Source of the DNA: Chloroflexota bacterium
Lineage (GTDB): Bacteria; Chloroflexota; UBA6077; SHYK01
Length of the DNA stretch: 54,986 nt
Assembly (NCBI GenBank): GCA_035652535.1
Contig: DASRDP010000115.1
Coordinates: 1 to 54,986 of the forward strand
Reading direction: 5' to 3'
The notes beneath the pieces are model-generated. The model did not search any database, had not been told where the DNA came from, and saw only the letters and a list, made by a program, of their open reading frames with translations. This document shows positions 25,467-27,951 of the stretch, one piece after another; within the stretch, counting starts at the first letter, position 1; the number at the start of each line of letters is the position of its first letter. The position numbers were made by a program, and so were the translations under genes.

Positions 25467-25487
25467 CCCCAAATTGCGCTCAGAGCC

Positions 25488-25514
25488 CCGAGGGTCTTCG
25501 TCAAAAGCCCTCGG
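25488..25514 (+). terminator. stem-loop after the tRNA cluster
   Basis: CCGAGGG (25488-25494) and CCCTCGG (25508-25514) form a perfect 7-bp stem with a 13-nt loop, 22 nt after tRNA-Phe. There is no T tract, so it may be a processing or termination hairpin for the tRNA transcript. Confidence 0.4.
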
Positions 25515-25539
25515 ACTTCTGATCTGCCACTACCACCAT

Positions 25540-25959
25540 TCATACCCCCATAGAAGCTTCCGCGGAGCCTACGAAGACCTCCAGCTTGGACGCGGCAGCT
25601 TGCTGCATGTCGCGGAGCACATGGCTCCAGATTTCCATGGTGACGGCAATCGTCGCGCGCCCGAGGCGTTCCTGCACAACGTTCGGATGCTCGCCGAGGG
25701 ACACGAGCAGGTTTGCCGAGGAATGCCGGAAGTCGTGGAAGCGAATGTGGGACAGGCCCGCACGTTTGAGGAGCGGCTTGAACGACCGCCGCTGAATATT
25801 CTGCCGTTCCAGTGGCCCGCCGACCGCATTCGCGAAATCCAGGTCGTGGGTTGACCCCACGCGGGCCGACTTCCGTGCTTCGAGTTGTGCTTCGCGGCGC
25901 ATCCTTAGCGCGTCCATCGCGACGAGCGGCAGCGTGATCGTCCGTCGCCCGCGGGCCGC
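25540..25959 (-). pseudogene. tyrosine recombinase/integrase remnant (C-terminal half only)
   Basis: The minus-strand frame from 25917 encodes the back half of a phage-type integrase. The box II HxxR is intact in FHDFRHSSANLL, and LGRATIAVTMEIWSHV follows. In the last motif the catalytic tyrosine position is Trp (codon TGG), and the usual His of LGHxxI is Arg. The frame can be followed upstream through RGRRTITLPLVAMDALR to about 25959, after which recombinase similarity ends. The N-terminal domain and the first catalytic Arg are absent. It lies beside tRNA-Phe, a usual integration target. I read it as a dead remnant of an integrated element. Confidence 0.75.
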
Positions 25960-26084
25960 AGCGCGGCTCGTTCTCGCCGCTCTCGCGAAATTTTCGTTCG
26001 CAGCGATTGGGCGGAGATCGGGGACGCGATCGACGCCGACCAGCTGCCGTCCCTCATGATGCAGAGCGGTCCGCGGGGGTGGAA

Positions 26085-26192
26085 GTGAAACCGCGACGAT
26101 GTACTATCTGCAGCGTGACGAGCGGGCTCCTCTGCCACGCCGGGCGCCCGTGGGCGTGCTGCGTCTATCATGTGCGCAAAGGGAGGCGATGA
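26085..26192 (+). CDS. candidate Cys/His-rich microprotein
   Basis: A 35-aa ORF starting at GTG 26085 with GGGGGTGGA just upstream. It has five Cys and two His in the pattern C-x2-C-x7-C-H-x6-C-C-x2-H (RCTICS... LLCHAG... WACCVYHV), followed by a basic KGRR tail. Such spacing could bind a zinc ion. Its TGA shares a base with the ATG of the next small ORF (TGATG), as in coupled genes. No family is recognised. It lies in a gene-poor region beside the integrase remnant, so it could be chance; the ribosome site and coupling are the arguments for it. Confidence 0.4.
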   Translation: MKPRRCTICSVTSGLLCHAGRPWACCVYHVRKGRR

Positions 26193-26332
26193 TGCGCTGG
26201 TTCTGGCGGCTCCTCGGTGCCTTTTTCCTGTACCACGCGCTGACGAAAGGTCCGTCCTACACGGCGCGCTACCTGGCCCGCAGGCAAATGCGGCGGGCGG
26301 CGAATCGGGCGATACGAAAGGTGATGCGGTAG
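26192..26332 (+). CDS. candidate small basic membrane-associated protein
   Basis: A 46-aa ORF: MRWFWRLLGAFFLYHALTK is a short hydrophobic helix and the rest (RYLARRQMRRAANRAIRKVMR) is a strongly basic amphipathic helix. The ATG at 26192 is 5 nt after GGGAGG and overlaps the stop of the Cys/His-rich ORF. The composition suggests a membrane-anchored, acid-binding peptide. It has no recognised family and no toxin-antitoxin partner that I can name, though the size and character are toxin-like. Confidence 0.45.
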   Translation: MRWFWRLLGAFFLYHALTKGPSYTARYLARRQMRRAANRAIRKVMR

Positions 26333-26757
26333 GGCCTCGATCGCTCTTTGCGCTTTTTCGCAACCCAGGACTTTCGGAATTCGCGGACTTGTCTCGCATT
26401 TATGCACGCCGAGCGCAAGACTACTTCTCTGCGACGCTCCACGCGTCTCCGGACTGGCGCATATGAGGCCCTGGCGACAGAAGTCCAGCACCCTGCCTGC
26501 GAGGCCTTCGATCACTTGAAGCAGAGCCGCGCTGTCTTGCTCCGGTTCGAGAAGACGGGCCAGTGCTTCGAGAGCGCTCCGCCACCCGCCAGCGATCACG
26601 ATGGTCCCGGGCCCCGTTCCGTCTGTTCTTCGGGCTCATTCGCTCGTCCATCGCCTGGATTTGTCCCCCGGCGGCCGTGCTGCGCGGTATAAATGGGAAG
26701 TCCGACGAATTTGAGCGGGATCCGAGCGCGCTCGACCGCTCGTCAAAGGAGGTCTCA
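26333..26757. other. 425-bp stretch without a confident gene
   Basis: No convincing intact gene is seen. On the minus strand an ORF from 26599 has a short segment (LARLLEPEQDSAALLQVIEG) that resembles the helical core of Coq4-like proteins, and its reading frame then loses sense, so it may be a decayed gene. The last 70 bases hold the promoter-like and ribosome-binding sequences of the tyrosine-rich gene. Confidence 0.5.
26688..26693 (+). promoter_or_regulatory. possible -10 element of the tyrosine-rich gene
   Basis: TATAAA at 26688-26693 lies 65 bp before the TTG start. The best -35-like hexamer, TTGTCC at 26661, is too far away (21 bp), so this is a weak single-element match. Confidence 0.35.
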
Positions 26758-27201
26758 TTGCTCGCATCTTTCGAGGGGCTGTGGACTCAATCCTGGGCGT
26801 TGAGGCGGTGTCTCGCAGTGCTCGTCATCGCCGCTGCCCTCGGCGTCACGGCGAACGCGCTCCCATCGGTGGCGCCGACGGCGACGGCGCAGATTCAGAC
26901 CTATCCTTCACCGTATTACTGCTATACGTGCACCGCGTATTACTACAATCCGAACTACGCAAACCGCGCGACCTATTACTACCCAAACGGCGTCACGACA
27001 CCGCCCTACTATTACTATCAGAACATGAGCTACGTTGGCTATTTCCCCTACTATTACCCCTATTATTCCGGTCTCTACAATTACAACTACGCTTACTATC
27101 CTTCGTACTACCCCTACTACTATCCGTCTTACGGTTATGGGTATGGCTACTACCCCTATAGCTACTATCCATACTATCCGTATTACGGGTTCTACTACTA
27201 A
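26758..27201 (+). CDS. secreted tyrosine-rich low-complexity protein
   Basis: The start is TTG 26758, 5 nt after a perfect AAAGGAGGT ribosome site. The product is 147 aa. Residues 1-45 form a signal peptide: a positively charged stretch (LRRC), a hydrophobic core (LAVLVIAAALGVTANAL) and a likely cleavage after TATAQ. The mature part is about 102 residues, 46 of them Tyr, in YYP, YYYP and GYGYGYY runs, with few charged residues and two early Cys (YYCYTC). I know of no named family. Tyrosine-rich secreted proteins can form cross-linked or pi-stacked surface layers or adhesives; that is inference here. Confidence 0.75.
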   Translation: MLASFEGLWTQSWALRRCLAVLVIAAALGVTANALPSVAPTATAQIQTYPSPYYCYTCTAYYYNPNYANRATYYYPNGVTTPPYYYYQNMSYVGYFPYYYPYYSGLYNYNYAYYPSYYPYYYPSYGYGYGYYPYSYYPYYPYYGFYY

Positions 27202-27230
27202 GGCCGCGCCCTCTGTGACCTTCGTCTCGT

Positions 27231-27261
27231 CGCGCCGGGAGGGAGCATGCCTCCCGGCGCG
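27231..27261 (+). terminator. strong 12-bp GC hairpin after the tyrosine-rich gene
   Basis: The arms 27231-27242 and 27250-27261 (CGCGCCGGGAGG / CCTCCCGGCGCG) pair perfectly around a 7-nt loop GAGCATG. It lies 30 bp after the tyrosine-rich gene's stop and has no T tract. The hairpin contains a GGGAGGG and an ATG (27247) that opens a longer Nudix reading frame, so it could either end the upstream transcript or mask that start. Confidence 0.5.
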
Positions 27262-27360
27262 CGCAGGACGGCGGCTGCGTGCAACCGGCCCCGCAGCCGG
27301 GTCCTGCGTTGTGCGACGGATCCCGTTTGGCGTTGCGCAGTGCTCGACCGGGACCGCCCC

Positions 27361-27951
27361 ATGATGCGCGAGAACGCGCGAATCGCCGCCGTGCTCCTCC
27401 TGGTTTATCCGCGCGAGGGCGCGCCGCACGTGGTGTTCACCCAGCGAACGAACACCGTGAGCGCACACCGAGGTCAGATTTCGCTGCCCGGCGGCTCGCG
27501 CGACCCAAATGACGGCTCACTGGAGGTCACCGCCCTCCGTGAGACGCACGAAGAGCTGGGCATCGCTCCCGCGCACGTCGACGTCTGGGGGCGGCTGGAC
27601 GACGTGTACGTCCATACCAGCAACTTTGTGATCGCACCGTACGTCGGCGCCCTTGGCTATGAGCCAACGTTTTGTGTGAGCCCGGAGGAGGTCGATCACG
27701 TCATCGAGGTGCCCCTCGACACGCTGCGAGACCCACGGATCCTCCGCGAAGACGACTGGATCCTGCGCGGCGCCGTGCGGCGCGTGCAGTTCTACGAATA
27801 CGGGCGGTACCAGATCTGGGGCGCCACCGCGCGCGTCATCGAGCTGTTCCTCGCGAGTCCATATCTCGAGCGAGCCGCCGCGGCACCGGAACCTTGGGGC
27901 GATGGGAGCCGGGCGGGGGCCGTTGCGTCCAAGGAGATCCAGCATGGATGA
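27361..27951 (+). CDS. Nudix hydrolase, CoA pyrophosphatase-like
   Basis: The protein shows RGQISLPGGSRDPND followed by ALRETHEELGI, the Nudix box in the form used by NudL/PCD1-like CoA diphosphatases (RGQ-xxPGG in front of the box). These cleave CoA or related nucleotides to phosphopantetheine and ADP. An in-frame ATG at 27247 gives 234 aa, but its ribosome site and start codon are buried in a perfect hairpin, and the extra residues are not family-like. I therefore prefer ATG 27361 (196 aa). Its stop overlaps the MmgE/PrpD start by 8 bp. Confidence 0.83.
   Translation: MMRENARIAAVLLLVYPREGAPHVVFTQRTNTVSAHRGQISLPGGSRDPNDGSLEVTALRETHEELGIAPAHVDVWGRLDDVYVHTSNFVIAPYVGALGYEPTFCVSPEEVDHVIEVPLDTLRDPRILREDDWILRGAVRRVQFYEYGRYQIWGATARVIELFLASPYLERAAAAPEPWGDGSRAGAVASKEIQHG

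What the first reader, a model, noticed from the sequence alone, without database searches (positions are those of the whole stretch)
26758..27201. Secreted protein with about 45 % tyrosine after its signal peptide
Directly seen: a TTG start behind a perfect AAAGGAGGT, a clean signal peptide, then 102 residues containing 46 Tyr (runs of YYP, YYYP, GYGYGYY), few charges and only two Cys. Few bacterial proteins are this tyrosine-rich. Tyrosine-rich secreted polymers can be oxidatively cross-linked, form stacked or amyloid-like layers, or act as adhesives or UV screens; that role is inference. It lies in the accessory region beside the integrase remnant.
Basis: partly seen in the sequence, partly recalled or inferred. 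Interest (0 to 1): 0.8.

Follow-up and report, generated by a model that had tools for sequence, protein, structure and literature searches.

The report
Private family of tyrosine-packed secreted proteins
This bacterium carries at least five scattered genes for small exported proteins that are about half tyrosine and almost without charge, most likely building blocks of a surface layer or matrix; none of 28 relatives searched has a comparable set.

Summary
Window 26758-27201 (+) encodes an exported protein whose mature part has 46 Tyr in 103 residues, one Arg and no Lys, Asp, Glu or His. It is not a chance frame in a simple repeat: the frame beats every dinucleotide shuffle, Tyr and Pro codons are mixed, and a 12-bp hairpin follows the stop. 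The same genome holds four more unlinked genes of this kind (44-67 Tyr, 48-51%). Three of those share a homologous signal peptide (z 7-10). Four of the five genes carry a 12-13 bp post-stop hairpin; the fifth has a weaker one. Two adjacent larger exported Ig/Fn3 proteins have Tyr/Gly/Asn-rich stretches. No such set was found in 28 other genomes of the class. The window copy lies in a 1.9-kb segment between tRNA-Phe and a NUDIX gene; a same-family genome has unrelated DNA there. Tyr-rich exported proteins recur in distant bacteria but are less dense over 100 residues. Best reading: a lineage-specific family of disordered structural proteins forming an aromatic surface or matrix material, perhaps oxidatively cross-linked. 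Export and family are well supported; assembly, cross-linking and location are inferred. No literature or family model describing it was found.

The parts
26745..26753 (+). Shine-Dalgarno AAAGGAGGT
   Evidence: read directly
26758..27201 (+). Gene for the exported Tyr-rich protein (P1), 147 aa, TTG start
   Evidence: no Pfam or NCBIfam family
26758..26889 (+). Putative signal peptide ending ATA|Q
   Evidence: hydropathy peak 2.94 over 12 residues; weak similarity to the P2 and P3 signal peptides (13/1000 shuffles each)
26890..27198 (+). Mature part: 46 Tyr in 103 residues; CYTC near its start; YYPYYYP and GYGYGYY motifs
27231..27261 (+). 12-bp perfect hairpin after the stop (terminator-like, no T-run)
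   Evidence: random 78-nt stretches reach 12 bp or more in 0.3%; fold z -3.1
25469..27376 (.). Segment absent from the syntenic locus of a same-family genome (replaced there by 598 bp with a DinB-like gene)
   Evidence: blastn of L169 against the window
25540..25917 (-). Integrase C-terminal remnant next to the tRNA genes; Trp where the catalytic Tyr is expected
   Evidence: Pfam Phage_integrase 4.7e-10; TMEIWSHV with TGG codon
25394..25468 (+). tRNA-Phe(GAA), last of a Leu-Val-Phe tRNA cluster; left edge of the variable segment

Best explanation
P1 is one member of a lineage-specific, dispersed family of small exported structural proteins (at least five genes in this genome). Each gene is its own short unit: strong ribosome-binding site, Sec-type signal peptide, then a mature chain of about 90-130 residues that is roughly half tyrosine, spaced by Pro, Ser, Gly and Asn, nearly free of charge. 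The chain probably leaves the cell disordered and self-assembles outside through dense tyrosine stacking and hydrogen bonding into an insoluble surface layer or matrix material. Where present, the two Cys near the mature N-terminus could tether or dimerise it, and tyrosines could be joined as dityrosine by an exported oxidase or by light or oxidants. Shown: the ORF, composition, predicted export signal, family, hairpins and absence from the relatives held. Inferred: assembly, cross-linking and location.
For: Five unlinked genes of the same make in one genome: P1 46/103 Tyr, P2 53/103, P3 67/133, P4 48/99, P5 44/89. P2, P3 and P4 have no K, R, D, E or H in the mature part; P5 has 2 Arg and 1 Asp. 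P2-P3-P4 signal peptides are homologous (z 7.3-9.6, none of 1000 shuffles), and between P2 and P3 the 12 shared residues of the core include 7 synonymous codon differences against 5 identical codons, which points to selection on protein. Perfect 12-13 bp post-stop hairpins behind P1-P4 (0.3% each at random). GC3 of 0.73-0.85 in P3, P4 and P5, as in neighbouring genes. P5 lies 66 nt upstream of, and on the same strand as, a signal-peptide-bearing bactofilin-like protein. Two adjacent exported proteins with Ig-like and Fn3 domains carry Tyr/Gly/Asn-rich stretches. AlphaFold gives pLDDT below 50 over nearly all the mature part, consistent with disorder. A multicopper oxidase with an N-terminal hydrophobic segment and the HCHVAEHM copper motif is encoded elsewhere in the genome.
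Against: No expression, localisation or assembly data. P1 and P5 signal peptides are not clearly homologous to the others, and P1 and P2 mature parts align no better than shuffles of the same composition (54/500), so P1 may be convergent in composition. No oxidase gene lies beside any member; no DyP peroxidase was found in the genome. The oxidase reading frame is broken in this assembly. The single-sequence AlphaFold model is weak evidence either way.
Confidence: 0.6

Rival explanations
1. The tyrosines mainly serve chemistry rather than architecture: a secreted sacrificial oxidant sink, UV screen or tyrosyl-radical electron relay at the cell surface.
For: Tyr density near 50% with almost no charge and occasional Trp (P4 7 Trp, P5 4 Trp); closely spaced Cys pairs near the mature N-terminus of P1 and P2.
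Against: No heme or metal motif, no neighbouring redox partner shared by the five loci; Cys spacing differs between members and P3 and P5 have none in the Tyr-rich part.
Confidence: 0.15
2. An adhesin or surface-conditioning coat (hydrophobin-like in role): an aromatic, uncharged film used for attachment to minerals or other cells.
For: Exported, uncharged, repetitive; the Ig/Fn3 proteins with Tyr/Gly-rich stretches look like surface proteins.
Against: No anchoring motif, sortase signal or lipobox seen in P1-P5; nothing in the tools tests attachment.
Confidence: 0.17
3. Mobile-element cargo: P1 came with the element whose integrase remnant sits beside it, and acts for that element.
For: Private 1.9-kb segment at tRNA-Phe with an integrase remnant.
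Against: Four similar genes lie elsewhere among ordinary metabolic genes; Tyr-rich ORFs from viral contigs are of other build, with charged tails; no duplicated tRNA end marking the element's far edge was found.
Confidence: 0.05
4. Chance or decaying ORF in a low-complexity stretch.
For: No homologue at the syntenic site of relatives.
Against: Shuffle test, mixed codons, ribosome-binding site, hairpin, four further genes in the genome.
Confidence: 0.03

Closest known systems
Apicomplexan oocyst-wall proteins (e.g. Eimeria GAM56 family)
   Same: Secreted, tyrosine-rich, intrinsically unstructured wall proteins; a title in the reference list of PMC8746199 reports peroxidase-catalysed dityrosine bonds in the Eimeria maxima oocyst wall.
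   Different: Eukaryotic; no sequence relation tested or claimed; cross-links are not shown here.
Trematode eggshell tyrosine-rich proteins
   Same: Secreted Tyr-rich proteins hardened by oxidation (background knowledge; papers located were not read).
   Different: Eukaryotic; usually with tyrosinase, which was not detected in this genome (but the control rang nowhere, so inconclusive).
Bacillus spore-coat proteins such as CotC and CotU
   Same: Bacterial Tyr-rich structural proteins of an outer layer (background knowledge).
   Different: From memory: Lys-rich as well, made in the mother cell without a signal peptide; here no Lys and a signal peptide.
Tyr-rich exported ORFs of very large genomes of the same phylum (G363, G345; L037, L038)
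   Same: Signal peptide, then (P)YYYPYYR/P repeats; 46 and 63% Tyr in 57 and 51 residues.
   Different: Shorter, Arg-containing, more regular repeat; different signal peptide; no demonstrable homology.
Exported proteins and lipoproteins with Tyr-rich segments across bacteria (L061, L071, L096, L112, L140 and others)
   Same: YYPYYY motifs in secreted proteins.
   Different: Tyr-rich part is one segment beside charged or Gly/Ser-rich parts; best 100-residue window 39 Tyr against 46 and 52 for P1 and P2.

Membership tests
Tyr-rich exported family of this genome (P2/P3/P4) | Sec-type signal peptide ending with a small residue pattern before Gln (xxA|Q) | tested here: met
   P1 ends ATA|Q; P2 ANA|Q; P3 ASA|Q; P4 TSA|Q
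Tyr-rich exported family of this genome (P2/P3/P4) | Mature part about 45-51% Tyr, nearly uncharged | tested here: met
   46/103, one Arg
Tyr-rich exported family of this genome (P2/P3/P4) | LRWxxLPxLxL signal-peptide core | tested here: inconclusive
   P1 against P2 and P3: z 3.0, 13/1000 shuffles each; against P4 none
Tyr-rich exported family of this genome (P2/P3/P4) | GC-rich 12-13 bp hairpin within 78 nt after the stop | tested here: met
Dityrosine-cross-linked wall proteins | Dityrosine bonds in the mature material | not testable with these tools
   needs mass spectrometry or fluorescence
Dityrosine-cross-linked wall proteins | Exported oxidase or peroxidase available | tested here: inconclusive
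   multicopper oxidases present, one frame-broken in the assembly; DyP not found; tyrosinase search had no ringing control
Bacillus CotC-like spore-coat proteins | No signal peptide, Tyr- and Lys-rich | tested here: not met
   signal peptide present, no Lys in the mature part; the family's features are from memory
Any Pfam or NCBIfam family | Profile match | tested here: not met
   none for P1 and P2 in either library, none for P3-P5 in Pfam

The most novel reading that the evidence does not exclude
A bacterium builds an extracellular material from a private multigene family of nearly charge-free proteins that are half tyrosine, a bacterial counterpart of the oxidatively hardened tyrosine-rich walls of animal eggs and protist cysts, evolved independently.
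Probability: 0.3. Interest if true: 0.85.

Novelty: new variant of a known kind. Interest (0 to 1): 0.62.

Why it matters
Tyrosine-hardened protein materials are known mainly from eukaryotes. Five genes of this kind in one bacterial genome give a small, expressible set of nearly charge-free, half-tyrosine proteins with which self-assembly and dityrosine formation can be tested directly. They also show that composition-driven protein families escape homology searches: the protein searches found none of the other copies, a degenerate Tyr-codon pattern found them.

Tried and rejected
Protein search in 60 relatives and in GTDB contigs found nothing: a misleading negative, because the Tyr-rich part is low-complexity and the signal peptide is short; degenerate Tyr-codon patterns were used instead. 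Synteny of the NUDIX and vWA neighbours in the order (read): no Tyr-rich gene beside them in relatives within the 1.5 kb fetched on each side. Homology of the P1 and P2 mature parts: not separable from composition. Phage origin: Tyr-rich ORFs in viral contigs have a different build. PDB search: only chance-level matches. Structure: low confidence (pLDDT 43), so no fold search was run. Literature: no relevant paper found on Tyr-rich proteins in Chloroflexi or Ktedonobacter.

Full report
OBSERVATION. TTG at 26758 follows AAAGGAGGT with a 4-nt spacer; the frame ends at 27201. Residues 19-30 form a hydrophobic core, the c-region ends ATA|Q, and the mature 103 residues hold 46 Tyr, 14 Pro, 2 Cys, 1 Arg and no other charged residue or His. 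Dinucleotide shuffles of the mature DNA gave at most 27 Tyr in the best of six frames (1000 trials). Tandem Repeats Finder sees only two weak 12-nt arrays of 2-3 copies inside it. The codons behind the repeats are mixed (TAC 27, TAT 19; CCG 5, CCC 5, CCT 2, CCA 2), so the protein pattern is not a copy of one DNA unit.

A FAMILY, FOUND BY CODON PATTERN. Protein searches returned nothing, as expected for a short signal peptide plus low-complexity sequence. The degenerate pattern for Tyr pairs, TAYTAYNNNTAYTAY, has 19 matches in the genome against 3 for the reversed control. Seventeen fall in five genes: the window gene P1 (4), P2 on contig C152 (6), P3 on C163 (3), P5 on C85 (3) and P4 on C104 (1). 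One lies in P6 on C36, and one is in a gene that looks like uvrB, whose YYDYY motif (background knowledge) probably explains the single TACTACGACTACTAC-type match in many relatives. All five small proteins have a signal peptide and a mature part with 45-51% Tyr. P2, P3 and P4 have no charged residue or His in the mature part; P4 and P5 add Trp.

ARE THEY REAL GENES. The signal peptides of P2, P3 and P4 (LRWxxLPxLxL) match each other far beyond shuffles (z 7.3-9.6; two control signal peptides from the same genome reach at most z 2.6). In the 17-codon core P2 and P3 share 12 residues, 7 of them through different codons, so the protein and not just the DNA is kept. P1 is linked only weakly (13/1000 shuffles with P2 and with P3), P5 only by composition. 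P1-P4 each have a perfect 12-13 bp hairpin within 78 nt of the stop; random stretches of this genome reach 12 bp in 0.3%, and all five flanks fold better than the mean of their shuffles, P5 least (z -2.2 to -3.8). P3's hairpin is followed by a T-run, as in an intrinsic terminator. The genes sit singly between ordinary genes (Rieske dioxygenase, FAD and thiamine-diphosphate enzymes, NMT1-like protein, sensor kinase). P5 is 66 nt upstream of an exported bactofilin-like membrane protein.

SURROUNDINGS OF THE WINDOW COPY. The order MFS, tRNA-Leu, tRNA-Val, tRNA-Phe, NUDIX, MmgE/PrpD is shared with G001 of the same family. DNA similarity stops exactly at the end of tRNA-Phe (25468) and resumes at 27377 in the NUDIX gene. 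Between them the window has 1908 bp (integrase remnant, P1) and G001 has 598 bp with a DinB-like gene (the name is my reading of the sequence). This is a variable site at a tRNA gene; the remnant integrase has Trp in place of the expected catalytic Tyr. I found no duplicated tRNA end, so whether P1 arrived with the element is open.

DISTRIBUTION. In 28 other genomes of the class no comparable cluster was found, and per-genome counts do not exceed the reversed-pattern control as a group (the loci opened from those genomes held no Tyr-rich exported ORF, but not every match was opened). Limits: no same-genus genome is held and the four same-family genomes are 76-88% complete. Elsewhere in the phylum, very large genomes (G363, G345) encode shorter exported proteins of YYYPYYR/P repeats. 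Exported Tyr-rich proteins are thus a recurrent solution; a set of half-Tyr, uncharged ones is the unusual part.

MECHANISM. A small exported chain with about 50% Tyr, Pro/Ser/Gly/Asn spacers and almost no charge is very unlikely to be an enzyme; AlphaFold finds no confident fold (mean pLDDT 43, single sequence). The most economical role is structural: chains that associate outside the cell by aromatic stacking and hydrogen bonds. Several dispersed, differently spaced copies fit a bulk material better than a specific ligand. The same genome also has two adjacent exported proteins with Big_7 domains, one also with Fn3 domains, and long Tyr/Gly/Asn-rich stretches (P6 and P7; P7 has 34 Tyr in its best 100 residues). 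Laccases and peroxidases couple Tyr through phenoxyl radicals (PMC8746199). The genome encodes multicopper oxidases, but no link to these genes is shown, so cross-linking is a possibility and not a finding.

IDENTITY OF THE ORGANISM. The genome is a 168-contig assembly with 4.56% estimated contamination. Contigs C115 and C152 are tied to the lineage by their neighbours (93% protein identity to G001 next to P2); C163 and C104 only by the shared signal peptide with P2; C85 was not tested for origin.

Noticed in passing
window 25540-25917 (-): Tyrosine-recombinase C-terminal remnant beside the tRNA-Leu/Val/Phe cluster; the expected catalytic Tyr is Trp (TMEIWSHV), so it should be inactive.
   Followed up: partly
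window 25469-27376 against L169: Variable site between tRNA-Phe and the NUDIX gene: 1908 bp here, 598 bp with a DinB-like gene in a same-family genome.
   Followed up: yes
L258 6946-10803 (G000:C36): Two adjacent exported proteins with Big_7 (one also Fn3) domains and Tyr/Gly/Asn-rich stretches (454 and 762 aa); possible partners of the Tyr-rich family.
   Followed up: partly
L257 8403-9731 (-): Bactofilin-like protein with signal peptide and membrane segments directly downstream of Tyr-rich gene P5.
   Followed up: partly
L205 1079-2151 (-): Multicopper oxidase whose two halves lie in different frames: a frameshift in the gene or in the assembly.
   Followed up: no
L037, L038 (G363, G345): Exported proteins of YYYPYYR/P repeats with up to 63% Tyr in very large genomes of the same phylum.
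   Followed up: partly
L071, L096, L133: Exported Tyr-rich proteins (two from Nitrospirae MAG records) that share a C-terminal stretch like GVWYYCPDSKKYYPYVKEC or part of it.
   Followed up: no
window 26099-26332 (+): Small ORF with a hydrophobic stretch and a basic C-terminus in the variable segment; no convincing family match.
   Followed up: no
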